Shown here: piece after piece, positions 3,401 through 28,731 of the stretch
Layout: each line of letters opens with the position of its first letter
Position numbering within the stretch: the first letter of the stretch is position 1
Assembly: GCA_022508305.1 (NCBI GenBank)
Contig: JAFLVM010000001.1
Location: 375,347 to 439,346 of the forward strand
Direction of reading: 5' to 3'
Length of the DNA: 64,000 bases
From: Clostridiales bacterium
GTDB lineage: Bacteria > Bacillota > Clostridia > Christensenellales > CAG-314
Notes under the pieces: model-generated
What the model saw: only the letters and a program-made list of their open reading frames with translations
Database searches by the model: none
Told to the model about the DNA's origin: nothing
Program-made: the position numbers and the translations under genes

Positions 3401-4273
3401 CTATTGTTGAGAAGTGTCACCTTGTTCGTCGATAGTTGCCGTCTGGGCTGTTTCGCTGCTATCACTGACTGTTTGAGTGTCGGCGGCAATGTTTTCACCG
3501 TCTTGAGGAGTGTCAGTCACTTCGGTCGCGGTTTTCCTTTTGCTCTTGATTTCCCAATGCAGCGCCTTAGACAGCGGTTTGTAGACGAAGAAAGTGATAA
3601 CGGCGCAAATTACGCAACGCATAACATTGAACGGAATTACGCCCAAAGTCAAGTAATACTTGTAAAAGCTGTCAACGGTGACGCCCTCGTAAAGCGTAGA
3701 AACGGCGCCTACGATAATGGACATTCCCTTGTCATAGTCCATGTTGCCGAATTGCATTGCGTAAAATGGAATGAGCACAAGCCAGTTGGCAAGTACGGCG
3801 ATTCCCGTAGCGCAAAACGTGCCAAGCAGCATACCAAGCGCAGAGCTTTTTCTGTTTTTGAATTTCTTATACAACAGAGAAGCTGGCAACACGAAAGCTA
3901 TACCGACCACGATGTCCGCAAGCTCGCCGACGCAGGACGTTGAGGTAAGCGGCATTTTGAGCGCGCATTTCAGCACTATGATGATGACCGAAGCCCAAGG
4001 TCCAATTGCAAAACCGCCAAGCAACGCGGGCAAATCGGAAATTTGAATGTCCAACCAGGGCGGGAAAAACGGCAAGTTGAAAATCGGTATAATTTTCGGC
4101 AGCAGATACAGCACGTAAGAAATTGCGGTGAGAATTGCCATTACCGCCATGTTGCCGGCTGTAAAGAATTTCACCTTTTTCTTAGCAGGCGCGGCTGTCG
4201 CTACGTCGGTCTGAGCAGTAGCTATTTGTTCTACTTCTTGCTCTTGTTGTGTTGTAGGGGTTTCATTTTTCAT
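3401..4273 (-). CDS. ribU: Riboflavin ECF transporter substrate-binding subunit RibU
   Basis: A 290-residue integral membrane S-component of an energy-coupling-factor importer for riboflavin. About six hydrophobic segments follow a charged N-terminal tail (~40 residues, rich in Gln/Thr/Lys). RibU-like features include the alanine/threonine-rich first helix AVMAILTAISYVLY and the DIQISDLPALLGGFAIGP stretch. The C-terminal ~45 residues are a hydrophilic Thr/Ser/Asp tail of unknown role. I start at the ATG at 4273 because AAGGAGG (4278-4284) precedes it; a longer in-frame reading runs into the riboswitch. The FMN riboswitch upstream fixes the substrate assignment. The shared EcfA/EcfT module is not in this window. 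Confidence 0.93.
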   Translation of the reverse strand: MKNETPTTQQEQEVEQIATAQTDVATAAPAKKKVKFFTAGNMAVMAILTAISYVLYLLPKIIPIFNLPFFPPWLDIQISDLPALLGGFAIGPWASVIIIVLKCALKMPLTSTSCVGELADIVVGIAFVLPASLLYKKFKNRKSSALGMLLGTFCATGIAVLANWLVLIPFYAMQFGNMDYDKGMSIIVGAVSTLYEGVTVDSFYKYYLTLGVIPFNVMRCVICAVITFFVYKPLSKALHWEIKSKRKTATEVTDTPQDGENIAADTQTVSDSSETAQTATIDEQGDTSQQ

Positions 4274-4290
4274 AATTCCTCCTTCTCTTT

Positions 4291-4325
4291 GGAAACGAAA
4301 AGCCCTTGGCGTAAACCAAGGGCGA
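4291..4325 (-). terminator. Expression-platform terminator of the FMN riboswitch
   Basis: The minus strand has GCCCTTGG, loop TTTACG, CCAAGGGC (arms 4302-4309 and 4316-4323), then TTTTCGTTT. It sits between the aptamer and the ribU ribosome binding site, so FMN binding most likely favours termination here. Confidence 0.8.
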
Positions 4326-4351
4326 AAATACCTAAAAATATAGATATTTAA

Positions 4352-4472
4352 TTCTTTTCTCATCCGGACTGTACCGTCGGCTCGGGAATTTCACCCGATC
4401 GGCGCAACTTGCAAGCAAATCGCGTTCATAGGCTGTAACTATCGGTGTGGAATTGCACCACGCCCCAAAGAA
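4352..4472 (-). promoter_or_regulatory. FMN riboswitch (RFN element)
   Basis: The minus strand carries the conserved RFN blocks in order: GGGGCGTGGTGCAATTCCAC, then ACAGCC..., then CGGGTGAAATTCCCGAGCCG, then ACAGTCCGGATGAGA. This is the FMN aptamer of riboflavin genes. It lies directly upstream of ribU and is followed by a terminator hairpin, which indicates transcriptional OFF control when FMN is plentiful. Confidence 0.95.
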
Positions 4473-4492
4473 TTATTTTGTTTTGTAAGTTT

Positions 4493-13589: not shown

Positions 13590-13615
13590 GGAATTAGAAA
13601 CAAGCAAAAAGAGAA

Positions 13616-13650
13616 CAAAAGAACCAAGCCGAATTGGCTTGGTTCTTTTG
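13616..13650 (-). terminator. Terminator of the ABC-nuclease operon
   Basis: A perfect 10-base-pair stem, GAACCAAGCC / GGCTTGGTTC, with a 5-base loop and flanking A and T runs. It ends the long operon whose last gene stops at 13690. Confidence 0.9.
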
Positions 13651-13689
13651 TTTAGTTGTTAGTACGCTAACGTTGAGAAGTTTCAACGA

Positions 13690-16077
13690 TTAGTCAGCGG
13701 AACCTGTCAACACTCTACCGAGATGAGCAACGAATTGAGTTACGCCAACTGCGCTTGCGTTGGAACCGCTGATACGTGATGTTTCACTTGCGCTAAGCGT
13801 TTCGAAAGTGCCGTACGTTCCAAGGTAAACAATCTTACCTGCGTTTGTTTTGCCGGCTGAAATAGTCCAAGTGAACGTTCCGAGTTCACTGTCCCACTTC
13901 CAAGTTGCGCTTGAGCTGTCGGCAAGTTTAACTTGAGAAATAGATCCATCTTCGTTGGGTTCGATATACTTGCCACCAATTTGGAGCGTCCAACCGTCGC
14001 TTTCGCTACCTGCAAGAGTTACCGTTCCTGCTTGAGCAGCATCAGTCGTCATCTTGATGAAGTTGCCGTCCATTTGAGGAATTACAAAGTACCACGCATT
14101 TTTATTAGCTTGGAACAAAGCAAGTTTATAATCACCTGCAACGGGTGTAGCCATTTCTTCGAACACCTTTGCCGAAACTACCAAGTTGATTTCAGCTTGG
14201 TCATTAACGCTGTTAAGGCTGATTGACGCTACAAGCTTGCCGGTGTGACTTTGGTTGTCCAACGTAACCGTGAGTTTGCCGCCTGTCAAAGTTGCCCAAG
14301 AAGGAGTGCTGCCGTCAAATGCCCAAGTAATGGTTACGTTTTGGAAGCCCCAACTCGTGCCGTCGGTAGGCAGATTAATTGACTTGTCGATATAGAACTC
14401 TTTGAGAATTTCGCTGTCAAGATTTGCCTTGACCTTTTCAACAATCTTCTCGTCGGAGAGCTTTTCAGCGGAGATGAGGTGATAGCTGTAGGTTGTGTAA
14501 GATCCGATTGTGTACTTCGCCTCAAGATACAGGCTTTCTGCATCGCCGGGAACGATAGAGAGTTTCGCGCCGTCCAAAGAGATTGTGTCACGAATAGCGC
14601 ACAGTCTGTAAGAGATGGTTACGCCACTGTTGCTCGTGGGAAGGTTGAAGTCCTTAGTAACTGCTACAGTACCGTCCAAACCGTTGTTTTTCAGGTAGGT
14701 ATTTACTGCGGAGATAGCCTTAGCCGCGTTAGTACCGTCTGTGTAGGTAGCTGCTTCAGTTCCAAGAGTTACGTCTGCAGTGCTTCTCGGAAGAATCTGA
14801 TAGTTGCTGTTGTACTTGGACAAAACGCCCGTTACGCTTACAACTTGGTCTTTTTGATACGTTTCTCTCAAAGCGCACAGACCTTCCCAAATCTCGTTAC
14901 CTTCTGCTGCTGCGTAGAAGCCTTGCATGTAGTTGGAGGTAGCAACCGTTACGTCTACGTTGCCGTTTGTCAAGGTAAGAACTGTAGCTGCCTTACCTGC
15001 TGCGGGTTTGCTTGAAGCAACGGACTTAATCTTCCAGTTGGTAAGTGATACCAAACTACCTGTGTAGTAGTTAGCTGCGGGAACCTTGCCGATAGCGTCG
15101 TTGTCGAACGCATGGATACGTGAGTCGGGATCGATGGGGGTTACGTCAGTGTCGATAACCAATTCGCCGCCCTTACCTTCAATCAAACCGTTGTAGGGTG
15201 AACAGGGAACACTTGATGCGGTAAAGTGCATGCCGGGAGCAAGCAATTCGCCGTCAGCAGAGGACATCTTGATTTGGTACAGATAGAAACCGTGACAACC
15301 GTCGTCGTCCACTGCGTAGATTGAAGCGTTACCGTAAGTTGCGGCATAGGGTTGAGCTATACCAACTACGTAACCGCTAACGTCAATGTTACCGCTTTGA
15401 GTTTCGTACCAAGCAGCAATGCCTGCCGCGTGATCCTTGTACTCGGTAACGATGAATTGATATTCCATGGGAACGGTATCGCCGTTGTAAGTGATTTCTA
15501 CGCCGATCTTAACCTTTACGTCTTGACCCTTAAGAACGGTGACGTTGACGTGTTGAGTGTGTTCAGCGCTGTTGACGTCGCCCATCGTTGCAACGTTGCT
15601 GTAGGTATCTGCAATACTCCAAGTAAGTTGCGCCGTTCTGTTGTTGTAAGTCAGTTGCGTGGGAACGTCGAAGTCGTCGTAAACGTTACGTCCTTCTTGC
15701 TCGAATTGGTATTCGTCCAAGAAGTAGAAAGCGTTGATTGGCTTTACGATGACGGTGAACGTCTTGGTTGCTCTACCGACGGATGCGGTAAGAGTTACCG
15801 TTTCGCGGGTGTCACCTGCAATGGGAGTTGCAAGCCAAGTTTCCGCCTGTTGCGTAAGACTGAGAGAGTTGGGCTTGTCAGCCGTCCAATTTAGCTCGTA
15901 TTCGTTGTTTTCACCAAGATATCTCGGCAACGTGAATGGACTGCTTACCGTTTTGCCGTTTTGCTGAACGATCAGGCGAGTGTCGAGCACGTCCTGAGCA
16001 TTGTCGCAAGCAACAAGCAGGATACAGGACACAATGCAAAGAACTGTAAGAACAGCAATCAATATTTTTCTTTTCAT
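13690..16077 (-). CDS. Large surface lipoprotein with Ig-like and OB-fold-like regions
   Basis: A 795-residue exported lipoprotein (lipobox LVAC, Cys24). Residues ~30-215 form two beta-rich Ig-like repeats; further such repeats occur around 465-650. The stretch ~225-440 resembles two tandem OB-fold modules of the kind attached to YhcR-type extracellular nucleases: a 'sGYVvGIAqPYAATYGNASIY' pattern and later a VVSVTGVLSKYNSNYQI pattern. The C-terminal ~120 residues form another beta-rich unit (KLALFQANKNAWYFVIP...). No catalytic motif is visible. It is the last gene of the ABC-nuclease operon, with AAGGAG before the ATG. A nucleic-acid or ligand-binding surface role is inferred; the fold calls are by eye. 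Confidence 0.6.
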   Translation of the reverse strand: MKRKILIAVLTVLCIVSCILLVACDNAQDVLDTRLIVQQNGKTVSSPFTLPRYLGENNEYELNWTADKPNSLSLTQQAETWLATPIAGDTRETVTLTASVGRATKTFTVIVKPINAFYFLDEYQFEQEGRNVYDDFDVPTQLTYNNRTAQLTWSIADTYSNVATMGDVNSAEHTQHVNVTVLKGQDVKVKIGVEITYNGDTVPMEYQFIVTEYKDHAAGIAAWYETQSGNIDVSGYVVGIAQPYAATYGNASIYAVDDDGCHGFYLYQIKMSSADGELLAPGMHFTASSVPCSPYNGLIEGKGGELVIDTDVTPIDPDSRIHAFDNDAIGKVPAANYYTGSLVSLTNWKIKSVASSKPAAGKAATVLTLTNGNVDVTVATSNYMQGFYAAAEGNEIWEGLCALRETYQKDQVVSVTGVLSKYNSNYQILPRSTADVTLGTEAATYTDGTNAAKAISAVNTYLKNNGLDGTVAVTKDFNLPTSNSGVTISYRLCAIRDTISLDGAKLSIVPGDAESLYLEAKYTIGSYTTYSYHLISAEKLSDEKIVEKVKANLDSEILKEFYIDKSINLPTDGTSWGFQNVTITWAFDGSTPSWATLTGGKLTVTLDNQSHTGKLVASISLNSVNDQAEINLVVSAKVFEEMATPVAGDYKLALFQANKNAWYFVIPQMDGNFIKMTTDAAQAGTVTLAGSESDGWTLQIGGKYIEPNEDGSISQVKLADSSSATWKWDSELGTFTWTISAGKTNAGKIVYLGTYGTFETLSASETSRISGSNASAVGVTQFVAHLGRVLTGSAD

Positions 16078-16095
16078 TGATGTTTCTCCTTATTT

Positions 16096-17427
16096 TTATT
16101 TAACTTTAAAGATATCATTCAAGTCGATAACCGTGATATTGCGAACGTTGTCCACCAATTTGTGAACACCGCCGAAGCGCAACACGCTGCCTACTTGGAT
16201 TCCTGTGTAGTTGTCGGGGACCTTTACCTTGCAAACGAACTCTCTTACGTCGTTCTCGTCGTAGGAGTTCTTGCCGTTGATTCTGCAGGACTCGCCCTTG
16301 AAGGTGAGATAGCCATCAACGACGTCGCCAACCCACGTCACCGTCATGTCGCGGTAAACGTTCTTGTTGTAGTTGGAACGGTACACTTCCGAACCGACTG
16401 TCGAGTCGAAAATGAGGTAGTAGTTACTGCCCTTCGTTGTGGTCTTCTTCTCGCCGTCATTTACAGGGTCGTAGTCTATGCTGGTGATTTGGTACTCGCC
16501 CGTAGCCTCGTAGAACTGAATGTTTCCTACAATCTTGTAGTAGTCGCCCACCTTCATTTCCGAAGCCTTGTTGCTGGAGTAAGCCGCGTAGACGTTGACA
16601 CTGTATCTTTCGCCTGTGTCGGGGTCGTACTGTGTTGCTTTGAACATAAAGGTGCCCGTAACTGTCAAGCTTTCGAGATAAGCGTCAAATTGAATCAATG
16701 CGCCCGTTCCAAGCTCGGTGTAGAACAAATCGTCCGTGCTGTTTTCGCCTGCTGCCTCGATAGCTTTAAGTCTACTCCACATCTCCTTGAGGGTGATGGG
16801 AACAACGACGTCTCTGTAGAGTGGGTCTGCAAGCTCGGAGTACAAACGAACCTGTTTCTTTTGAGCAAAAGCCTGCGCCTTTGCAAAGTAACTGAAGTAG
16901 GGATACGTCGGGTCTTCAGTACCGTTGTTGGGACTGAAACCGTTTTCCACAAGCTCGAGGTTCAAGCACTTGAGGTCCTTTTCGCCCCTGGTTCTGTACC
17001 AAACGTAAGCAAGATAGCGTGAACCGTTGCTGTCCTTACCGGGAGCTTGACCTACGCCGTTGGTTCCCTCAAGAACAATCAAATCAGCGCCGGAAAGCTG
17101 TTGCTTTACGAACAAAGACGCAGCTTTACCCCACGGCTCTACCATACCGGTACTTTCGGGAGTGTTGATTTGATAGTAACGTACTGTAAAGGACGCTCCG
17201 TTAGCAAGTTGAAAGTTGGTCGTGTCGCCGTCAATGTATCTTTTTACGGTGACAACGCCGATTCCGTCTGTAAACCAGGACTTATTTTCGTATGCCTTGT
17301 CCAGCTTGAGAGTTCTGGTAATTGAGTCAAAGTGTTCGGTGTTGTCGGCGACGCCGCATGCCGTCAAAACACAGCATGCGGAAATAACCAACAAAACCGC
17401 CAAGGTTATACTAATTAGTTTTTTCAT
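16096..17427 (-). CDS. Staphylococcal-nuclease-like surface lipoprotein with OB-type C-terminus
   Basis: A 443-residue lipoprotein (lipobox LTAC, Cys24) with a TNase domain at about 55-200. Aligned to S. aureus nuclease, DGDT gives Asp66/Asp68, RYYQINTPES gives Arg83, Asn88, Thr89 and Glu91, and SRYLAYVW gives the second active-site Arg. The Ca-binding Asp40 equivalent is Asn88. The domain normally cuts DNA or RNA near the cell surface with Ca2+. Residues ~235-440 look like two OB-like beta regions (LTVTGTFMFKA..., YYKIVGNIQFYEATGEYQI). It sits between the solute-binding lipoprotein and the large OB/Ig lipoprotein. The domain call is strong; the in vivo substrate is inferred. Confidence 0.88.
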   Translation of the reverse strand: MKKLISITLAVLLVISACCVLTACGVADNTEHFDSITRTLKLDKAYENKSWFTDGIGVVTVKRYIDGDTTNFQLANGASFTVRYYQINTPESTGMVEPWGKAASLFVKQQLSGADLIVLEGTNGVGQAPGKDSNGSRYLAYVWYRTRGEKDLKCLNLELVENGFSPNNGTEDPTYPYFSYFAKAQAFAQKKQVRLYSELADPLYRDVVVPITLKEMWSRLKAIEAAGENSTDDLFYTELGTGALIQFDAYLESLTVTGTFMFKATQYDPDTGERYSVNVYAAYSSNKASEMKVGDYYKIVGNIQFYEATGEYQITSIDYDPVNDGEKKTTTKGSNYYLIFDSTVGSEVYRSNYNKNVYRDMTVTWVGDVVDGYLTFKGESCRINGKNSYDENDVREFVCKVKVPDNYTGIQVGSVLRFGGVHKLVDNVRNITVIDLNDIFKVK

Positions 17428-17442
17428 TTTGTCCGTTCCTTA

Positions 17443-19023
17443 TTAGTTCATACCGCCGCAGTCGTCGTAGGTCTGCTGAATAGCTGCCTTGACACCGCTC
17501 AGGGTTGCTCCACTACCGCCAAGCACCTTAATCATGAGCGATTCAACGCATTGACGGGCAGTTGACGAGCCGTCAAATGCGGGAGAGGTGAAGAATACGC
17601 CGGACATTTGCATTTGGTGAGCAACGAACGCTGCGTACGCAATAGTCGTTTGTTTAGCTTCCAACTTCTGACCGAAAGTGATTTGGTTACCGTCACGGTC
17701 TACGTCTGCAATTTCGTCGTAAGCAGATTCACGGGAAGGAATGTAACCGTTGTTGCCGCAGAACTTAACTTGCCACTTGGGTTCAAGCATCATCTTCATG
17801 AACAGCCAAGTCATCTTTTCCTTTTCGTCAGCGTTGGTAACGCCGTGTCCGCCACGGAACATAACGAAAGAGGGACCTTGAGCGATTGCTTTGTTGGTGA
17901 TGTTACCTGCGCCGTCATCCGTTCCCGGAATGGGAGCAATGCCAACGCTGAAGTTGACGGAATCTTGATAGGTCGCGCCACCGGAAGAACCGATACAGTA
18001 GATTGCGCCGCCGCCTTCGCCTGCGTCAACGGTAACGTCGCCAACTTTACCTACGCCCTTACTGAACACGTCGGAGGTGTAGCTGCCGCCGGAGGAGTCA
18101 AGAGTAAGACGGGTGAGGAAGTAACCGTCGTTTTTGTAGTGACCGTACAAATCTTGAAGCCATTGCTCAAGACCTGATTGGTTTCTGAACGGGAAGTGTT
18201 CGTCAGCGTTCTTGTCGGTGTATTTCCAACCGTTTTGAGCGCACATCGTGATGAACCAGTTAGCTTCACTGTCGTAGGTGAAAGGAGTAACGTTGGGGAA
18301 GTATTCCTTAATAACAGCGCATTGAGCCCACAAAACGCTCCAAGATGCGGGAGCAACGATATTTTCACCGTTAACGAAGAGGGAAACTCTTTCGTCGTTC
18401 TTGGCTTTCATCATGCTAACGAGGGATTGCAAAGCGTCCTTGTTGTAGAACAAAAGCTCAGTTGACTTGATGAAGGGCAAAGCCAACAAAGCGTCACTGC
18501 TGTAGCCGTATTGCGTTACGTCGGTGAAATTGTCCGCTCTACCGTCTGCCATGTAAATGGCGCTGAAGTCGTTTTGTTCTTCATCGTCATATCCAAGACG
18601 GGTAGGAATAGTAGTATCCAATTTGTTACCGCTCTTGTCGTAGGTTTGAACGTCAAACGTTTCTTCACTTGCAAAGTACTTGTTGAGGTCCACTACCGTT
18701 CTGTTGGTGAGGTAGGTTGCAACGTGGTCGGGATAGCAGTAAGCAAGGTCGGGTTGATTGCCGTTACGAATATCCTTAACGATAAGGTTGGGCAAACCTT
18801 CCCAGCTACCTGCCGAGTAGTCATGCTCAACGTGCCAACCGGGGTATTTAGCTTCGAATTCTGCAATAACTTCAGCAGTAATTCCTCTCAAAGCCGATCC
18901 TTGGTTGGAATAAAATACAATCGTGTGCTCGTAGTCTGTCGGCTCGGTGCAAGCTGTTAAGAGCGTCAGCGCGCACGTCAGCACAAGCACGATAACAATT
19001 ATACTTGTTAGTAGTTTTTTCAT
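17443..19023 (-). CDS. Extracellular solute-binding lipoprotein, family 1 type
   Basis: A 526-residue ABC binding protein (lipobox LTAC, Cys25). The mature start TIVFYSNQGS and the following AEVIAEFEAKYPGWHVEH are typical of family 1 (maltose/glycerol-3-phosphate type) binding proteins. It is larger than the usual ~430 residues and has glycine/serine-rich loops (GGSYTSDVFSKG). It lies after the two permease genes, separated by a 107-base gap with a stem-loop. The ligand cannot be read from sequence; the nuclease next to it suggests nucleic-acid fragments, while the family suggests sugars. Confidence 0.88.
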   Translation of the reverse strand: MKKLLTSIIVIVLVLTCALTLLTACTEPTDYEHTIVFYSNQGSALRGITAEVIAEFEAKYPGWHVEHDYSAGSWEGLPNLIVKDIRNGNQPDLAYCYPDHVATYLTNRTVVDLNKYFASEETFDVQTYDKSGNKLDTTIPTRLGYDDEEQNDFSAIYMADGRADNFTDVTQYGYSSDALLALPFIKSTELLFYNKDALQSLVSMMKAKNDERVSLFVNGENIVAPASWSVLWAQCAVIKEYFPNVTPFTYDSEANWFITMCAQNGWKYTDKNADEHFPFRNQSGLEQWLQDLYGHYKNDGYFLTRLTLDSSGGSYTSDVFSKGVGKVGDVTVDAGEGGGAIYCIGSSGGATYQDSVNFSVGIAPIPGTDDGAGNITNKAIAQGPSFVMFRGGHGVTNADEKEKMTWLFMKMMLEPKWQVKFCGNNGYIPSRESAYDEIADVDRDGNQITFGQKLEAKQTTIAYAAFVAHQMQMSGVFFTSPAFDGSSTARQCVESLMIKVLGGSGATLSGVKAAIQQTYDDCGGMN

Positions 19024-19084
19024 GTTTTGTCTCCTTTATTTATTAACTTCTACACAAAGTGTAAATAAGTTTCGTATGAATGTC

Positions 19085-19116
19085 GTAAGTTTGCCCAACA
19101 ATGGCGTTTAACTTAC
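19085..19116 (-). promoter_or_regulatory. Intercistronic stem-loop between permease and binding-protein genes
   Basis: GTAAGTT (19085-19091) pairs with AACTTAC (19110-19116), and inner GCC pairs with GGC. There is no T-run, so it is not a terminator. Stem-loops here often set higher mRNA levels for binding proteins than for permeases. Confidence 0.45.
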
Positions 19117-19131
19117 CGGTTTCAGACAAAA

Positions 19132-20184
19132 TTAGCCCTTCGTACCGCTCTTGGACACGCCGCGCATGATGTACTTGCGGCAGGTGAGGAACAGTATAAG
19201 TAACGGCAACGAAACCATGCAAACTGCTGCCATACGCAGCGTCGTAAGACTTTCGGTTGCGCCGATTGCTCCGTTGTACAGTATACCTTTGCTGTCGGTA
19301 AAGCCGCCCGTTACCCAGTTGGTAATCATTTGCCAGCTTTCTTCACGGTTGACCAAACGGGGCCAAATGTAGCTGTTCCAAGTACCGATGAACTTGAGTA
19401 GCGTAATGGACGTCAAGGTCGGAGCAGTCAGTGGCACCATTACCTTGATGAGGTAGCCCATGTCAGACAGTCCGTCCACCTTCGCAGCTTGGTACAGCGA
19501 ATGGGGAATTTGCATGAAGTTGTTTCTTAGCAGGTAAATGTAGTACACACTTACGAGGAAGGGCAAGATAAGTACCGTGTAGGAATTGCCCCAGCCCCAT
19601 TTGCTTACGAGCTGATAGTTACCGATGGTGAACATTTCACCGGGAATCATCATGGTTGCAAGCATGATGGCGAATATGATGTTTTTGCCCTTGAAGTTAA
19701 GACGCGCCAAAGCGTAAGCTGTAAGAATTGTTACGACTACGCCCATAGCCGTGGAAAGCAGACCTACCACGAGAGTGTTGATAAGTATCTGCACGAAGGT
19801 GTTGCCACCGTCGTCCGCCGACGCCAAAACAACGGAGTAGTTCTTCCACATGAATGTCTTGGGGAAGAAAGTGGTAGTAATCGAACGGTATTCCCACTCT
19901 GTCTTCAAGGACATGATTACCATCATGTAGAATGGCAAGAATGCCAACAATGCGCACAAAGTGAGGAAAAAGTATACGAAAATGTTTCTTATTATACGAA
20001 TGGTTTTTTCTTTCTTTTGTACGCGCGCCACGTCGAAATCAGCAGCTGCTTGCTCCGATTCGATGGTTTGCGGACCTGCCAATGCAGGATTTACTTCCGC
20101 TTCATTCGGTTGCTCTACCGCAACTTCCTGTTCAATTAACGTTTCGGGAGCTACGATTTCTTGATTTTCAATTTTCTTACTCAT
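19132..20184 (-). CDS. Carbohydrate-type ABC permease (MalG/UgpE family)
   Basis: A 350-residue permease with six predicted helices. The N-terminal ~65 residues are hydrophilic and acidic (Glu/Gln/Ala), unusual for this family. The EAA loop appears as YQAAKVDGLSDMGYLIKVMVPLTAPTL, and the tail NSYIWPRLV is typical of the MalG group. AGGAGG precedes the ATG. It pairs with the MalF-type gene 14 bases upstream. Confidence 0.92.
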   Translation of the reverse strand: MSKKIENQEIVAPETLIEQEVAVEQPNEAEVNPALAGPQTIESEQAAADFDVARVQKKEKTIRIIRNIFVYFFLTLCALLAFLPFYMMVIMSLKTEWEYRSITTTFFPKTFMWKNYSVVLASADDGGNTFVQILINTLVVGLLSTAMGVVVTILTAYALARLNFKGKNIIFAIMLATMMIPGEMFTIGNYQLVSKWGWGNSYTVLILPFLVSVYYIYLLRNNFMQIPHSLYQAAKVDGLSDMGYLIKVMVPLTAPTLTSITLLKFIGTWNSYIWPRLVNREESWQMITNWVTGGFTDSKGILYNGAIGATESLTTLRMAAVCMVSLPLLILFLTCRKYIMRGVSKSGTKG

Positions 20185-20198
20185 TGTCGTACCTCCTC

Positions 20199-21302
20199 TT
20201 ATTTGTAAGTCGTGTGACGCTTGGTAACTTTGTTATTTATAAAGGTTATTATCATAATTATAAAGAACAAAATAAGTGAAGCGGCGTAGGCGTAACCGTA
20301 CTTAGGCGTACCGCCTTCTACGTAACGGTAGATGTAACCTACCATCGTACCCATGTCGTAGGCGACGCCCATGTTTGCGCCGAACAGACCCACGACTGCC
20401 GTGTACTGTTTCATACCGCCCATGATACCTGTAACGAGCAGGTAGCTGATTTGCGGGGAAATCATGGGAGCGGTAATCTTCCACAAAATTGTGCTGCGAG
20501 ACGCGCCGTCAACTTTAGCAGCATCGTAGTACTGCTTGTTGATGCTTTGTAGCGCGCTGAACAGTATCAAAATCTTGAAGGGAAGACCCGTCCACACCTC
20601 GTAAATTATCAAAACTATGTACTTAGCCCATGGGATGTTTATCGCGCCTAATGCCCAGGTGTTGCCCAATCCCATCCAGTCAATCTGAGTACCGAGCAGT
20701 GAGTTGATGATACCCCAGTTGGTGCCGGAACCCGTACGAATAACGGAGAAGAAGGTTGCGAACACCGCGCCCATAGCAAGCGAGTTGGTCAGGTAAGGCA
20801 AGAACAGTATCGTCTGATAAGCCTTTTGCAACGCCTTGATGGAGTTGAGCGCAACTGAAATGAGCAACGCCAACAGCGTGGACAAAGGAACTGACACCAA
20901 CGTGAACACTAACGTGTTTACAAGGCACTGCCAAAAGTTAGCGCCCGCCATACCCGTGTCGCCGCGGAAAACGTGCACGAAGTTGTCGAAGCCCCAACCG
21001 TTGTACACGCCGTTCATGTCAAGGTCGTTTTTGAACGCGTTGATGAACGCCGTAATTATCGGGTAGAAGCTGAACAAAATCATCAGAATGAGCGCAGGAG
21101 CCATGAACATCCAACCGTTTTGCGACTTGATGAAACGTTTGATCTTCTCGCCCGTGCTAAGCTGCGGCCCGTTGTTCAGTACCAAATCCGCCTCGACTTG
21201 CTTGCCGTTTCTGTTGCGGAACTTGGGAGTACGAACCTTGCGAGTCGGCTCTTCAGTTGTCTGTTCAAGTTCAACTGAAACGTCTTGTGGATTTTTCGCC
21301 AT
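20199..21302 (-). CDS. Carbohydrate-type ABC permease (MalF/UgpA family)
   Basis: A 367-residue permease. After ~60 hydrophilic residues, the first helix WMFMAPALILMILFSFYPII starts the classic UgpA-like core. The EAA loop reads YDAAKVDGASRSTILWKITAPMISPQI. The ATG overlaps the ATPase stop codon by one base (TAATG), so translation is coupled. Confidence 0.92.
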   Translation of the reverse strand: MAKNPQDVSVELEQTTEEPTRKVRTPKFRNRNGKQVEADLVLNNGPQLSTGEKIKRFIKSQNGWMFMAPALILMILFSFYPIITAFINAFKNDLDMNGVYNGWGFDNFVHVFRGDTGMAGANFWQCLVNTLVFTLVSVPLSTLLALLISVALNSIKALQKAYQTILFLPYLTNSLAMGAVFATFFSVIRTGSGTNWGIINSLLGTQIDWMGLGNTWALGAINIPWAKYIVLIIYEVWTGLPFKILILFSALQSINKQYYDAAKVDGASRSTILWKITAPMISPQISYLLVTGIMGGMKQYTAVVGLFGANMGVAYDMGTMVGYIYRYVEGGTPKYGYAYAASLILFFIIMIITFINNKVTKRHTTYK

Positions 21303-22390
21303 TATCTTATCCTCTCTTCGGTTTCTGCGTTAAACAGGAATACTTTGTTGGGTTTAAGGGTGAATCTGAGCTTATCTGCATCCTTCGGCAAAGCCACGTC
21401 GCTGTCGATTATGCAGCGAACGGTGGGCTTGGTGGATGACTCGTGCGTAGCAACGATGGACTTGTCTCTGCCCATGACCTCAATGTGGTCAACGTCCAAA
21501 GTGAGGATGTTGGTGCGAACGCGGTTGTTGTCCTCGTAGATGAAGCCTTCGGGACGGATACCCACGTAAACGTCTTGGTCGGGCAAATCCGTTTTCATAA
21601 TCGCTTCAAAGCCTATGTAAACCTTGCCGCCCTTAATCGTACCCTTGAAAATGTTGATGGGCGGAGTTCCCAAGAAGTTGGCAACGAACAGGTTTGCGGG
21701 GTCGTCGTAGATGGTTTGCGGTTCGCCGATTTGTTGCACCACGCCCAGCTTCATTACGACCATGATGTCGCAAATGGACATTGCTTCTTCTTGGTCGTGC
21801 GTTACGAACACCGTCGTAATACCCGTTTCGCGTTGAATACGCTTGATTTCCTCACGCGTTTGCAGTCTCAAACGTGCGTCCAAGTTGGACAGAGGTTCGT
21901 CCAAAAGCAGAACGTTGGGCATCTTGACTAACGCTCTTGCAATTGCAACACGCTGTTGCTGACCGCCGGACAGCTCGTTGGGCTTACGCGCAAGCAAATC
22001 CTCAATCTGCACCAGACGGGCTGCGTCAAGCGCGCGGGCGTTACCCTCTTCCTTCTTGATACGCATGTTGTCAAGCGGGAAACGGATGTTTTGCTCCACC
22101 GTCATGTGCGGATACAGCGCGTAGTTTTGGAAAACAAGTCCAATGCCGCGCTTTTCCGGAGCGAGGGTGGTAACGTCCTGCTCGTCAAACAAAATTTTGC
22201 CTGATGAGGGGGATTCCAGACCGGACAGCATAAACAACGTCGTGGATTTGCCGCAACCGGACGGTCCAAGCAAACCTACGAGCTTGCCGGAAGGAATTTC
22301 AATGGACATGTCGTCCACTGCTCTGACTTCCTTGCCGCCCTTGGTTCTGCTGGGGAAAATCTTGGTTAGGTTCTGAATAGATATTTTCAT
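21302..22390 (-). CDS. UgpC/MsmK-type ABC ATPase
   Basis: A 362-residue ATPase of the MalK family. Walker A is GLLGPSGCGKSTTL, the signature is LSGGQQQRVAIARAL, Walker B VLLLDEPLSNLDA and the H-loop VFVTHD. The C-terminal ~110 residues form the regulatory TOBE domain (VGIRPEGF). It energises the two permeases encoded just downstream. Its presence in the operon means the system need not borrow a shared ATPase. Confidence 0.93.
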   Translation of the reverse strand: MKISIQNLTKIFPSRTKGGKEVRAVDDMSIEIPSGKLVGLLGPSGCGKSTTLFMLSGLESPSSGKILFDEQDVTTLAPEKRGIGLVFQNYALYPHMTVEQNIRFPLDNMRIKKEEGNARALDAARLVQIEDLLARKPNELSGGQQQRVAIARALVKMPNVLLLDEPLSNLDARLRLQTREEIKRIQRETGITTVFVTHDQEEAMSICDIMVVMKLGVVQQIGEPQTIYDDPANLFVANFLGTPPINIFKGTIKGGKVYIGFEAIMKTDLPDQDVYVGIRPEGFIYEDNNRVRTNILTLDVDHIEVMGRDKSIVATHESSTKPTVRCIIDSDVALPKDADKLRFTLKPNKVFLFNAETEERIR

Positions 22391-22395
22391 ATGCT

Positions 22396-23670
22396 TTAGA
22401 CCTCTCGTCTTATAATTTTTATTTTAACGTCCATTTTGTACCCTTCCACTTCCAAATTGTCAGGAAGGTCCACCGGCGCGTATTGTCTGTTCATATCAAT
22501 GAACGGATTGACATATGTTCCTGCTTTGATTCGTTCCGTAGCCGTGTAATTGTTCTCTTTTAGAAGAATAAACACTATTTCCACGTCCGTGTTGGTGTAC
22601 TTGACCTGTACGCTCTCGTTGAAGTCGGGCAAATCCGTCAAATCCAACGACATTGTGACCGAGCTGTAGTAGTCGTGACCGAAAACCTCGCTTTTTTTGA
22701 GTTTTTTCCTGTCTTTGGGCTTGGCTTTGCACACGTCGTAAATAAACCAGCGGAAAAACTTGATTATGTAGTGGCTGCCAAGTAGAAAATCGCCGATTAT
22801 ATAAATTAGAACGAAGTAGGCTACTATTACTACCGACGCCTTGACGTTTGCGGGCTTGGCAATGAGCGCCTTGGTCGCCTGATACTCCTCGTTGTCCTTG
22901 TCCACTACTACGTAATTCTCATTTTGCGTGAATTCCGACTTGAAGGAGTAGTACTTGTTTTCCAGCTGCCTGTCCAAGCTGTTACGCTCCGATTCCGTTT
23001 TCGCCTCGTTGTACTGATGCAACAAGTCGTTGTACTCAGTCACGTAGCTTGACACGGTGACGAAAAATTGGCTCGTACTGAAATCGAGATTGACGTCTAA
23101 CGATTTGAACGTGTCGCCCGAAGCGTCGATTAGCTCTATGCTGCGGATGGACGAACCTACGTCGATTTCGGCAATGCTGAAGTAAATGAACCCGTAGTCC
23201 CTTGCCGTGGCGCATGCGTCCAACGTGCCGTCTCCGTCAACGTCGCTGTCCAGTAATTGCACTTCCTGAGAGGAGTTGACGAGCATTTTCGTGTCGTTGG
23301 TCTTGGTGCGGTAGGTGTCGTAGCTGTCCTGTACCCCGTATATGTACCCGAGATAGGTCTTGTACAAGGCGTAGCTTTCCAAGTGCAACAATTCCTGCTC
23401 GGCTTCCGTCCTTACGGGCATCACCGCCTCAAACAGGAAAATTCCACCGCCCTCTTCAAACCGAACGTCGCACACAGGCGTCTTGTTGAAGTAGTTGCCC
23501 GTCAGTATCATTACCGAATACAGGTCACCCTGCTCAAGCGAATCCACAACGAACTGCGGAGACTCTACCAGCTCCAAAAATGCGTTGGGCAACGTTAGCG
23601 CAAGAAGTATACCGATCAAAAACGTGAAGACGTAATAAATTATTTTGGCAAATAATCCTGCTTTCTTCAT
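22396..23670 (-). CDS. Two-helix membrane protein of the ABC-nuclease operon, function unknown
   Basis: A 424-residue protein I do not recognise. A helix at about 8-30 and another at about 285-315 flank an external domain of ~250 residues rich in acidic and aromatic residues; a ~100-residue basic/beta tail follows inside the cell. Part of the external domain (ca. 215-255) is likely helical (YNEAKTESERNSLDRQLENK). It lies second in the operon, 5 bases before the ATPase gene, so a link to the importer (assembly, receptor or sensor) is inferred from position only. Confidence 0.6.
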   Translation of the reverse strand: MKKAGLFAKIIYYVFTFLIGILLALTLPNAFLELVESPQFVVDSLEQGDLYSVMILTGNYFNKTPVCDVRFEEGGGIFLFEAVMPVRTEAEQELLHLESYALYKTYLGYIYGVQDSYDTYRTKTNDTKMLVNSSQEVQLLDSDVDGDGTLDACATARDYGFIYFSIAEIDVGSSIRSIELIDASGDTFKSLDVNLDFSTSQFFVTVSSYVTEYNDLLHQYNEAKTESERNSLDRQLENKYYSFKSEFTQNENYVVVDKDNEEYQATKALIAKPANVKASVVIVAYFVLIYIIGDFLLGSHYIIKFFRWFIYDVCKAKPKDRKKLKKSEVFGHDYYSSVTMSLDLTDLPDFNESVQVKYTNTDVEIVFILLKENNYTATERIKAGTYVNPFIDMNRQYAPVDLPDNLEVEGYKMDVKIKIIRREV

Positions 23671-23675
23671 GTTTC

Positions 23676-23951
23676 TTATTCGGTTTTTTCCTCCGCGGTA
23701 GGTTGTTCAGTTTCGCTATCAGCTACTTCAGCAGTAACTTCTACGGAGTCACTGGAAGCTTTAATGTTAGCCTTAAAAGCCACCTCTCTCTTGTGGAGAT
23801 TGTCGCGCATTTCTTGATATTGTTTTTTGTTGAAAACGGGAATTAGAAAATAAACTGCTATGATTACTGCAACGATGACTCCGCACAAAATGAAGAACCA
23901 CAGATCCGTTGCGCTGATTGGGTTGAGTTTGAGCGCTAACAAGCTTAGCAT
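23676..23951 (-). CDS. Small single-helix membrane protein, first gene of the ABC-nuclease operon
   Basis: A 91-residue protein with one transmembrane segment (about 15-38), a basic, helix-prone stretch, and an acidic Glu/Thr-rich tail. I start at the ATG at 23951 because GGAGGG lies 5 bases before it; an upstream in-frame start would add 24 residues without a site. It ends 5 bases before the 424-residue gene. Function unknown; the position suggests a small accessory subunit. Confidence 0.6.
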   Translation of the reverse strand: MLSLLALKLNPISATDLWFFILCGVIVAVIIAVYFLIPVFNKKQYQEMRDNLHKREVAFKANIKASSDSVEVTAEVADSETEQPTAEEKTE

Positions 23952-24046
23952 AAATCCCTCCAAAATTAAATTAACGAGCATTACCCCTAAAGGGCAACTG
24001 CAAAAAAGTGCATAAAATCCCAATGATAGTTATATTAACCTAAAAA

Positions 24047-24075
24047 ATTATACCATCTACAAATCGCTAAGTCAA
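24047..24075 (-). promoter_or_regulatory. Strong promoter of the ABC-nuclease operon
   Basis: The minus strand has TTGACT (24070-24075), exactly 17 bases, TATAAT (24047-24052). The ~90-base leader contains a TTGCCC-TTTA-GGGGTAA hairpin (about 23980-24000) before the first ribosome binding site. Confidence 0.75.
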
Positions 24076-26217: not shown

Positions 26218-28542
26218 TTACCTTAACGACCAACTATACCAATTATAGCTTCTCAGTTTAGTCGCCGCGTCCTCTCCACTGCTGACGGTAATATCTAATT
26301 CATCACCGTAAACGTGATGCTTGCGACATAGATACCAATTAGTACTGCCCAAAGTTACGTTAGTCAATTCTTCGCAACCGTAAAATACGTTTTCACCAAT
26401 ATAAATTGCGCCCGTCAAGTCCAACTCTTTAAGCGCCGTACAACAGTAGAAGGTATTTGCGTCCAACTTATACTCATTAGCCGAGATTTTGACGTCACAA
26501 AGCGCCGTACAGTTTGCAAACGCCGAATATCCTATTTCAGTTACGTTCGAAATTGTCAATTCGGTCAAACCTTGACAGTCGGAAAATGCCCACTCGCCAA
26601 TCGTAGTTAGATTTTCGAATAATCGCACTTGTGTAAGTTCATTGCAGTTCTGAAAGGCATGGTCGCCAATGCTGACGGTAGCAGTTGATATAGGCGCGGT
26701 CAACAAGGACTTACATCCGGAAAATGCATAGTCACCAATCGTCGTTATTCCGTCGTAATAATTGCAATTTTTTAGATTATAACAGCTGCGAAAAGCATAG
26801 TTTCCTATTTCGGTAAGACTCTCGGGAAGATTCACTTTTTCAAGGTTGGCAAAAGAAGCGAAGGCATAGGCGGGTACGTTGGTTATGCCGCCGCCTATAT
26901 CTATCTCAACCACGTTTTGATTGGCGTACGCACTCCACTTGTATCCAGTACGTCTGGATTTAATCTCGCCTTGTCCGCTAAGCGTCAACAATAGAGCGGC
27001 TTCACCGTTTTTGTAAATTCTATCAACGGAATAAGAAACGCCGTCATCCTCACCCTGTTCCACCAACGTATTGCTCGTATCGGAACTAACCTTTATCTCT
27101 CCATTGTAATATCCCCAGTCGTCGTACCAGGTAAGTTTCCAACCCGTTTCAACGTTTCCATGCGCCGTCATATTTTCTAAGCCACCAAGCTTGTAACTAC
27201 CGTCGGGATAAAATATTTGCGCGTATAACTCTGCGCTGTAAGGCGTTTCGCCGTAGAGTAATTCGTCGGGAATCAACTTGAGGCTCTGCTTTTGGTCACC
27301 TTTTATTACGTTCCACTTGACGTCTTTTATTTGATCCATGCTGACCTTGGAATTGTTAAACTCAACGCCGACTACAGCCCCGTTGTAGAATTGCACGCTA
27401 ATATACTTAAATTTCACTTCGCTGATGCGGTACATCATGTTGATTAATTTTGTATTTACAATTGCCTTATCGTCTTTTGTATCGACGTATGTCTGTTCGT
27501 ACAAAATACGCACAAAATCTTTCAGTAACCTTTCCATCTTAGGCGTACAGTATAGATACGAATATTGCGAGGAAATAATCCTACCAAGGGAACCCGTTGC
27601 GTTTGCAGCGTCGTTATCCATCGGTTCGCCGAGTATTTTTTTAACTTGCGCCTCATTGTCACCGATTTGTATGCTACTGACTTTGCTTGTCTGGAATATG
27701 TTGCCAACGGTGAGGGGCAAAACGACGGACAGCGCAACGCCTATTACCAATACGCAGCAGACTACTGCCGCTACTGCTTTGTGTAGTTTGAACCAATTTG
27801 CAGTTTTTTGAACAGACTGCACCTTCTTGCTTGAAGAACTGATACGCGCTTCTTTATTGAAGTAGTATTCTAATATCATAAATACCGCTTGAAACAGAGC
27901 AAATACTCCCGTAATCGTTGCTACGACGACTACGACTTTGCCCGCTTCCAGTCCAATGCTATTGCACACGCCAATTAGTCCCATTGCGCAGAGGAATATT
28001 GCAAGTTGCAGCGCGAAGCTACAAATATTAGCAATTAAATTTATCTTTTTATTGGCAAAGCGTTGCAGCAAAGCAAGCGCAACAATGTATACGCCTGATA
28101 TTGCCCCAAATGATATAAACGCGATTATGACAGGCTGCAATTCACTCACTGCGATGTTACCAATCCATTGATACACGTCGCCATCAAATTTTTTCAGTAG
28201 AGGCGCAGTGTACAACGCCCACAGTAGCAACGCCCACAACCCGTAGAACGTCAACGGCGCAAACCGCAGGACAACGCCCACTAATTTGTTCACCTTTTCC
28301 GAAAGTACGATGCTACGTCGTCGGGGTTGAACCGTTTCAAGGGTTGCGTCATCCTTTACAAGGTAGTCCAACGTGACGTGATACAGCATACTCAGTCGAA
28401 TAAGCTTGTCCGTTTCGGGATACGCTACGTCGCTTTCCCATTTACTTATTGCCTGACGCGACACGCCAAGTATATCTGCAAGCTGCTCTTGAGTGTAGTT
28501 GTTTTCCTTTCTAAGCCTTGACAGCTTGTCACCTACCGACAT
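26218..28542 (-). CDS. XRE-type HTH membrane protein with extracytoplasmic leucine-rich repeats
   Basis: A 774-residue protein with four parts. Residues ~3-60 are an XRE/Cro helix-turn-helix (YTQEQLADILGVSRQAISKWE). About five transmembrane helices span ~75-290, which puts the C-terminus outside. Next comes a region like SmpA/OmlA (IQIGDNEAQVKKILGEP). From about 575 to the end lie BspA-type LRR_5 repeats, such as 'ItTIGDYAFSGCKSLLTAPI'. I chose the ATG at 28542, which has GGAGGG at the right distance; the longer reading adds 30 unlikely residues. It may be a membrane-bound one-component regulator with an outside sensor; target genes are unknown. Confidence 0.85.
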   Translation of the reverse strand: MSVGDKLSRLRKENNYTQEQLADILGVSRQAISKWESDVAYPETDKLIRLSMLYHVTLDYLVKDDATLETVQPRRRSIVLSEKVNKLVGVVLRFAPLTFYGLWALLLWALYTAPLLKKFDGDVYQWIGNIAVSELQPVIIAFISFGAISGVYIVALALLQRFANKKINLIANICSFALQLAIFLCAMGLIGVCNSIGLEAGKVVVVVATITGVFALFQAVFMILEYYFNKEARISSSSKKVQSVQKTANWFKLHKAVAAVVCCVLVIGVALSVVLPLTVGNIFQTSKVSSIQIGDNEAQVKKILGEPMDNDAANATGSLGRIISSQYSYLYCTPKMERLLKDFVRILYEQTYVDTKDDKAIVNTKLINMMYRISEVKFKYISVQFYNGAVVGVEFNNSKVSMDQIKDVKWNVIKGDQKQSLKLIPDELLYGETPYSAELYAQIFYPDGSYKLGGLENMTAHGNVETGWKLTWYDDWGYYNGEIKVSSDTSNTLVEQGEDDGVSYSVDRIYKNGEAALLLTLSGQGEIKSRRTGYKWSAYANQNVVEIDIGGGITNVPAYAFASFANLEKVNLPESLTEIGNYAFRSCYNLKNCNYYDGITTIGDYAFSGCKSLLTAPISTATVSIGDHAFQNCNELTQVRLFENLTTIGEWAFSDCQGLTELTISNVTEIGYSAFANCTALCDVKISANEYKLDANTFYCCTALKELDLTGAIYIGENVFYGCEELTNVTLGSTNWYLCRKHHVYGDELDITVSSGEDAATKLRSYNWYSWSLR

Positions 28543-28599
28543 TGGCTTTCCCTCCGTAAACCTATTTTTTAACGTTCTTTCGAACCAAATTCTGCGACA

Positions 28600-28605
28600 A
28601 TTATA
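28600..28605 (-). promoter_or_regulatory. Candidate -10 box for the HTH-LRR gene
   Basis: The minus strand has TATAAT here; a 17-base spacing gives only the weak TAGTAA as -35. The gene could depend on an activator or be poorly expressed. Confidence 0.35.
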
Positions 28606-28731
28606 GCATTGCGAAACAAACTTTACTACCATTTTGCGGTTTCTTTATGTAAACTTTGGGTTGCATTTCACCTCGTCGGTGGGGCATGTAGGGGTGTTTG
28701 CGGTCTAATTAACCCAATCTTACGTATTTAT

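What the first reader, a model, noticed from the sequence alone, without database searches (positions are those of the whole stretch)
13616..24075. ABC importer fused in one operon with a surface nuclease and an OB/Ig lipoprotein: candidate nucleic-acid scavenging system
One promoter (TTGACT-17-TATAAT) and one terminator frame eight genes: two membrane proteins of unknown function, an UgpC-type ATPase, two permeases, a solute-binding lipoprotein, a staphylococcal-nuclease-like lipoprotein and a lipoprotein with OB-like and Ig-like regions. Sugar-type ABC operons do not usually hold a nuclease. From memory, some mycoplasma operons place an SNase-like lipoprotein next to UgpA/E/C-like ABC genes and have been linked to oligonucleotide uptake. 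This locus may be a related system in a walled Clostridia-like organism: digest DNA or RNA at the surface, hold it with OB folds, import fragments.
Basis: partly seen in the sequence, partly recalled or inferred. Interest (0 to 1): 0.8.

Follow-up and report, generated by a model that had tools for sequence, protein, structure and literature searches.

The report
Nuclease-coupled nucleic-acid importer operon
This bacterium carries a conserved operon that probably cuts DNA or RNA at the cell surface and pumps the pieces in, much as mycoplasmas are thought to do, and the same gene set turns up in many other gut bacteria.

Summary
Confirmed: eight minus-strand genes between a near-consensus promoter and a strong hairpin: two membrane proteins, UgpC-type ATPase, two permeases, SBP_bac_8 lipoprotein, SNase lipoprotein, and an aBig/DUF5689 lipoprotein. 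The nuclease belongs there: a scan led by the nuclease alone found the binding-protein gene directly before it in 78 of the 80 best loci (the other two start at a contig end), in gut Clostridia and Bacilli MAGs, Acholeplasmatales MAGs and cultured Anaeroplasma. Catalytic residues are invariant in 79 nucleases except Ca2+ ligand D40 (48 D, 31 N; window N). Permeases group with those of the mycoplasma P68-SNase-ABC operon against a small set of sugar permeases. In one SNase-less sister lineage the transporter precedes NrnA oligoribonuclease and SurE nucleotidase. The genus lacks purH (0 of 25) and over-cut-off pyrB (0 of 25); in the order, carriers less often have purH. Against: binding proteins also match carbohydrate-binder models, and some carriers keep purH. 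Best reading: surface digestion of nucleic acid coupled to ABC import of nucleotides or short oligonucleotides. Substrate, activity and structure are untested (structure prediction was off). A new variant of the mycoplasma system.

The parts
24047..24075 (-). Promoter-like site TTGACT-17-TATAAT, TG before the second hexamer
   Evidence: 11 of 12 consensus bases; total number of sites in the region is at chance level
23676..24023 (-). mem1: small membrane protein, at most 115 aa; likelier start ATG at 23951
   Evidence: ORF; start from the sequence; no Pfam match over cut-off; orthologs in the window's clade
22396..23670 (-). mem2: membrane protein, 424 aa, unknown family
   Evidence: ORF; no Pfam match over cut-off, no NCBIfam match; with mem1 in 37 of 80 scanned loci
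21302..22390 (-). UgpC-type ABC ATPase, 362 aa
   Evidence: ABC_tran 129.5 bits; UgpC model 359.5 of 432 cut-off
20199..21302 (-). Permease 1 (UgpA/MalF-like), 367 aa
   Evidence: BPD_transp_1 50.8 bits; UgpA model 67.4 of 335; trees
19132..20184 (-). Permease 2 (UgpE/MalG-like), 350 aa
   Evidence: BPD_transp_1 49.4 bits; UgpE model 113.3 of 297; trees
17443..19023 (-). Solute-binding lipoprotein, 526 aa
   Evidence: SBP_bac_8 78.9 bits; lipobox cysteine near-invariant; UgpB model 29.6 of 411 and mycoplasma P68 model 19.7 of 200 bits
16096..17427 (-). SNase lipoprotein, 443 aa; N at the D40 calcium-ligand position
   Evidence: SNase 43.6 bits; residue census in 79 nucleases
13690..16077 (-). 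Lipoprotein with aBig-like and DUF5689 regions, 795 aa
   Evidence: DUF5689 30.6 bits, aBig_2 24.6 bits; in 29 family members aBig_2 in 23, OB nucleic-acid-binding model in 11, DUF5689 in 3
13614..13652 (-). Terminator-like hairpin
   Evidence: 17 pairs; -26.6 kcal/mol, z -7.5

Best explanation
A nucleic-acid scavenging operon. The SNase lipoprotein cuts DNA and/or RNA at the cell surface; the aBig/DUF5689 lipoprotein (and an OB-type part of the nuclease itself) holds the polymer; the binding lipoprotein passes nucleotides or short oligonucleotides to the two permeases, driven by the UgpC-type ATPase; the pieces are broken down further inside and supply a genus that seems to have lost its own purine, and probably pyrimidine, synthesis. 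Shown here: gene content and conserved order, conserved nuclease residues, kinship of the permeases, partner genes in relatives, absence of purH and of over-cut-off pyrB from the genus genomes searched. Inferred: nuclease activity, what each lipoprotein binds, the imported species, the roles of mem1 and mem2.
For: Binding-protein gene directly before the nuclease gene in 78 of 80 loci found by the nuclease alone, full UgpC-permease-permease-SBP-SNase order in 67, misses and most partial cases at contig ends. Both genes missing from the same two of 25 genus genomes. D21, R35, T41, E43, R87 identical in 79 of 79 nucleases. aBig_2 in the gene behind the nuclease in 5 of 5 distant Bacilli loci scanned, OB model in 3 of them. 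Same gene set in mycoplasmas: SNase-motif lipoprotein between P68 and the ATPase in 16 of 17 loci holding the ABC genes, published as a putative nucleotide transporter (PMC4045577, PMC3585158). Permeases split with the mycoplasma ones from 9 or 8 sugar permease pairs by a 100/100 branch. An SNase-less sister lineage has NrnA and SurE behind the binding protein. purH 0 of 25 in the genus against 14 of 16 other genera; over-cut-off pyrB 0 of 25 against 12 of 16; nucleoside binder Bmp in 2 of 25; in the order carriers have purH in 8 of 34, non-carriers in 215 of 263.
Against: Of 76 binding proteins 74 match UgpB, 67 a carbohydrate-binder model (best 8e-20), 49 a chitin-sugar binder, against 52 for mycoplasma P68; nearest solved chains are sugar binders. 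The binding-protein HMM scores mycoplasma P68 no higher (22-43 bits, three found) than sugar binders (15-49). The window's nuclease has N at the D40 position, as do 31 of 79. The nuclease HMM hit the in-between nuclease in only 1 of the 16 mycoplasma loci. Carriers with purH exist: 8 of 34, and Anaeroplasma. G007 and G015 lack both operon and purH. The NrnA/SurE evidence comes from one group of close relatives. galK follows in several relatives.
Confidence: 0.7

Rival explanations
1. A sugar, sugar-phosphate or glycerol-3-phosphate importer of the ordinary CUT1 kind; the surface nuclease and OB lipoprotein merely share its transcript and serve clearance of extracellular DNA or defence.
For: All ABC parts look UgpABCE-like; 67 of 76 binding proteins match a carbohydrate-binder model; nearest solved chains are sugar binders; galactokinase follows in the window and several relatives.
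Against: No Ugp or sugar equivalog cut-off is reached; binding protein and nuclease stay adjacent in 78 of 80 loci while upstream genes change; the sister lineage carries NrnA and SurE in the same place; galK lies behind the hairpin in the window.
Confidence: 0.14
2. Import of nucleosides, nucleobases or released phosphate only: the nuclease and other surface phosphatases digest nucleic acid completely outside, and the ABC importer takes the monomer.
For: Usual route for extracellular DNA in published Izemoplasma/Hujiaoplasma models, which have nucleosides enter (PMC10470597, passage); Bmp nucleoside binder found in only 2 of 25 genus genomes, so another nucleoside route is needed.
Against: No nucleotidase is in this operon; NrnA and SurE of the sister lineage act on oligonucleotides and nucleotides and showed no family or sequence sign of export (my reading), which suggests that phosphorylated pieces enter.
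Confidence: 0.16

Closest known systems
Mycoplasma SNase-ABC operon (M. agalactiae MAG_5030-5070, M. bovis MBOVPG45_0307-0311; nucleases Mhp379, MG_186; lipoprotein MslA)
   Same: Binding lipoprotein next to an SNase lipoprotein, UgpC-type ATPase and two permeases; proposed import of nucleic-acid precursors (PMC3585158, PMC4045577, passages). Permeases group together against sugar permeases.
   Different: Here the order is ATPase-permease-permease-SBP-SNase (mycoplasma: SBP-SNase-ATPase-permease-permease); a further aBig/DUF5689 lipoprotein and two membrane proteins; binding protein well below the P68 cut-off; carriers outside the mycoplasmas.
Nucleic-acid degradation loci of Izemoplasma (Xianfuyuplasma) and Hujiaoplasma
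   Same: Reported loci with nuclease(s), ABC transporters and, in Hujiaoplasma, NrnA; growth on nucleic acids shown (PMC8397711, PMC10470597, passages).
   Different: Gene-by-gene comparison was not made here; those loci hold several other enzymes.
UgpBAEC and other CUT1 sugar importers
   Same: Family of ATPase, permeases and binding-protein fold.
   Different: Below every equivalog cut-off seen; no sugar enzyme inside the operon; nuclease and OB lipoprotein instead.
B. subtilis YhcR-type surface nucleases (recalled, not compared)
   Same: SNase combined with OB folds at the surface.
   Different: YhcR, as recalled, also carries a nucleotidase part and has no importer in its operon.

Membership tests
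Mycoplasma-type SNase-ABC uptake operon | SNase lipoprotein beside UgpC-type ATPase, two permeases and a solute-binding lipoprotein | tested here: met
Mycoplasma-type SNase-ABC uptake operon | Gene order SBP-SNase-ATPase-permease-permease | tested here: not met
   Here ATPase-permease-permease-SBP-SNase; mycoplasma order
Mycoplasma-type SNase-ABC uptake operon | Binding protein reaches the P68 family cut-off | tested here: not met
   Window 19.7 of 200 bits; 52 of 76 relatives match at E 0.01 or better
Mycoplasma-type SNase-ABC uptake operon | Permeases share an origin apart from sugar permeases | tested here: inconclusive
   100/100 branch against 9 or 8 sugar permease pairs, but few, long-branched outgroups and an outgroup-set root
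Mycoplasma-type SNase-ABC uptake operon | Lipoproteins bind or cut nucleic acid | not testable with these tools
   needs bench work
Active SNase (PF00565) | D21, R35, T41, E43, R87 (S. aureus numbering, recalled) | tested here: met
   79 of 79
Active SNase (PF00565) | D40 calcium ligand | tested here: not met
   N in the window; 48 D and 31 N in 79; effect on activity unknown
Ugp glycerol-3-phosphate or other named CUT1 sugar importer | UgpB/A/E/C models at their curated cut-offs | tested here: not met
   29.6 of 411, 67.4 of 335, 113.3 of 297, 359.5 of 432 bits

The most novel reading that the evidence does not exclude
A branch of the CUT1 ABC importers, found in gut Clostridia, Acholeplasmatales and relatives, other Bacilli and mycoplasmas and annotated as sugar transporters, imports short oligonucleotides or nucleotides instead of sugars. 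A surface SNase with an aBig/OB lipoprotein (this operon), or NrnA with SurE inside the cell (a sister lineage), are two ends of one digest-import-digest pathway.
Probability: 0.38. Interest if true: 0.85.

Novelty: new variant of a known kind. Interest (0 to 1): 0.62.

Why it matters
In the papers seen here, a nuclease-fed ABC importer of nucleic-acid precursors is proposed for mycoplasmas and remains a hypothesis. The same gene set in gut bacteria, including a cultured Anaeroplasma, lets it be tested outside pathogens. If true it explains how gut bacteria without purine synthesis feed on nucleic acids around them, and it would mean that a set of transporters now labelled sugar or UgpC importers is misnamed.

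Tried and rejected
A genome-contig scan with the binding protein alone found no relative; the nuclease alignment did. A phylum-wide sample gave 98 of 398 genomes with any hit, best besides the window's own 106 bits against 467, so this operon type is rare at that scale. The weak pyrB hits (19-47 bits, N-terminal part, 24 of 25 genus genomes) are below cut-off and were not identified. A sugar role suggested by galK was set aside because of the hairpin in between. Orthology of the binding protein with mycoplasma P68 was considered and dropped: the HMM scores P68 like sugar binders. In one search four purH hits with E 2.7e-5 to 6.9e-4 (G439, G617, G680, G697) were counted as absent. Paper searches (open library only) listed no description of this operon outside wall-less bacteria; I judged by listings and by passages of seven papers.
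Full report
What is there. Eight minus-strand genes with gaps of -1 to 18 nt and one of 108 nt before the binding protein lie between a near-consensus promoter and a very stable hairpin. Outside lie glmS upstream, and galactokinase and a second ABC operon downstream. Pfam and NCBIfam make the parts an ABC importer of the CUT1 kind (UgpC-like ATPase, UgpA- and UgpE-like permeases, SBP_bac_8 lipoprotein), an SNase lipoprotein, and a lipoprotein with DUF5689 and an aBig-like region; no Ugp model reaches its cut-off. The first two proteins match no family over a cut-off.

Does the nuclease belong? Of 41 genomes (25 of the genus, 16 of other families) the nuclease is found in 25 and the binding protein in 26; within the genus both are missing from the same two, G007 and G015. 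The nuclease hit in G028 stands alone (L080), as do the distant binding-protein hits in G030 and G034 as far as seen. In 23 relatives' loci (22 of the genus, 1 of another family) the binding-protein gene is directly before the nuclease in 23, with full UgpC-permease-permease-SBP-SNase order in 21; the other two are cut by contig ends. Of these 80, 78 have the binding-protein gene directly upstream and 67 the full order; the two misses start at a contig end, nine partial cases are cut by a contig end, and two (L157, L160) have a doubled or split binding protein. The loci come from MAGs labelled Clostridia, Bacilli, Acholeplasmatales and others (one labelled Spirochaetales, L155), and from cultured Anaeroplasma bactoclasticum ATCC 27112 (L126). 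The genes upstream change: mem1 and mem2 in 37 of 80, an RDD-family protein in 19 of 80.

The surface proteins. D21, R35, T41, E43 and R87 (numbering recalled) are identical in 79 nucleases; the D40 position is D in 48 and N in 31, N in the window. SNase is hit in 79 of 79; OB models in 10, 7 and 2 and DUF5689 in 5 of the same proteins at E 0.05 (that table gives no positions; in the window's nuclease the only hint is a weak exonuclease VII match at 272-328, E 0.022). The last lipoprotein's family has aBig_2 in 23, an OB nucleic-acid-binding model in 11 and DUF5689 in 3 of 29. Lipobox-like motifs: 71 of 76 binding proteins, 73 of 79 nucleases, 29 of 29 last lipoproteins. A DUF5689 protein of Riemerella is listed among proteins essential for natural transformation, and a speculative model has DNA bind to it (PMC8459023, passages): a hint only.

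The mycoplasma parallel. M. agalactiae MAG_5030 (P80)-MAG_5040 (SNase, active in vitro)-ATPase-two permeases is reported as one transcript and proposed to import nucleic-acid precursors (PMC3585158, abstract and passages). M. bovis 0307-0311 is called a putative nucleotide transporter operon, with MslA said to bind ss and dsDNA (PMC4045577, passages); two reviews repeat the link (PMC12115388, PMC9740415, passages). Pfam scans of five of these: SNase over cut-off in three, below it in one, none in one; my nuclease HMM found only one of the 16 at E 1e-3, so the nucleases are far apart. Trees of joined permease alignments: mycoplasma and window-type permeases are split from 9 or 8 plasmid-borne sugar permease pairs by a 100/100 branch; the SNase operons outside mycoplasmas form one 100/100 clade with two SNase-less members (L082 and a second copy in L138). 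Outgroups are few and long-branched.

Other partners. From the P68 search of 395 genomes of the Anaeroplasma class (202 with a match, 26 over cut-off) I chose 20 below-cut-off places, mostly high-ranked, some lower: 18 non-mycoplasma and 2 mycoplasma-like. Of the 18, ten have UgpC-permease-permease-SBP-SNase (one, L291, is the contig of L138 again); four have UgpC-permease-permease-SBP and then NrnA and SurE; three have a binding protein alone and then a PHP protein nearest to nucleoside-bisphosphate phosphatase and RNase RNM models (below their cut-offs); one (L289) is something else. Family scans were run on NrnA of L280 and L275, SurE of L280 and L285, and PHP of L274 and L279; the rest were recognised by their sequence. 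The four NrnA/SurE loci are close relatives and the three PHP loci are in three of the same genomes, so this is one lineage, sister to the SNase clade with 94/94 support. In the ten-locus set the gene behind the nuclease was scanned in five: aBig_2 in 5, an OB model in 3 (one below cut-off), a lamin-tail domain in 1. L138 also has an NrnA gene near its SNase operon. One transporter branch tied to different nucleic-acid enzymes is the best sequence argument for its substrate.

Physiology. purH: 0 of 25 in the genus, 14 of 16 in the other genomes. Aspartate transcarbamylase over cut-off: 0 of 25 against 12 of 16, with weak partial hits in 24 of 25. Bmp: 2 of 25 against 7 of 16. In 297 genomes of the order I took 250 bits with the nuclease profile as carriage (lowest carrier 257, next 129; the whole operon was not checked in 17 of the 18 carriers outside the window's family): carriers have purH in 8 of 34, non-carriers in 215 of 263; outside the window's family 8 of 18 against 212 of 257 (Fisher p 6e-4); inside it 0 of 16 against 3 of 6 (p 0.013). 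These tests ignore shared ancestry and gaps in MAGs. Anaeroplasma (L126) has purH over cut-off, L155's genome a partial match, L157's none. So carriage goes with purine loss but does not require it.

Against. The binding proteins match carbohydrate models often (UgpB 74, TIGR03850 67, NgcE 49, GanS 17 of 76) and P68 in 52; the nearest solved chains are sugar binders, E 3e-7. No substrate was tested and no structure could be made.

Verdict. Surface cutting by the SNase, holding by the OB/aBig parts, capture by the binding protein, ABC import of nucleotides or short oligonucleotides, final hydrolysis inside. Gene content, order, conservation and kinship are shown; activities and substrate are inferred. 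Novelty: a variant of the mycoplasma system with another gene order, a further conserved lipoprotein and other carriers. The bolder reading, an oligonucleotide-importing branch of CUT1 transporters, is not excluded.

Noticed in passing
window 4348-4476 (-): FMN riboswitch (RF00050, 111 bits); the gene behind it (3401-4363, minus) was not examined.
   Followed up: no
window 26218-28632 (-): 804-aa protein joining an N-terminal helix-turn-helix (HTH_3) to BspA-type leucine-rich repeats (LRR_5), an unusual pairing.
   Followed up: no
L275, L280, L283, L285: UgpC-permease-permease-SBP followed by NrnA and SurE: a nucleotide-linked ABC operon without SNase in one group of close relatives.
   Followed up: partly
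L274, L279, L286: Binding protein of the same family without permeases nearby, followed by a PHP phosphatase/RNase-like gene; in three of the same genomes as the NrnA/SurE operons.
   Followed up: partly
L073 15988-17614 and 19 of 80 scanned loci: In a second clade mem1 and mem2 are replaced by an RDD-family membrane protein and, in part of the loci, a membrane protein whose first part resembles pieces of the OB lipoproteins.
   Followed up: partly
L134 10001-12407; L157 1919-11362: Loci with two SNase genes; L157 also has two binding-protein genes in tandem.
   Followed up: no
G000 C1:451615-452127: Weak N-terminal match to aspartate transcarbamylase (36.6 bits), with like matches in 23 other genus genomes; gene not identified.
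   Followed up: no
L138 8610-16945: Anaeroplasmataceae locus with an SNase operon, then a second permease-permease-SBP copy without its own SNase, and an NrnA gene further on.
   Followed up: partly
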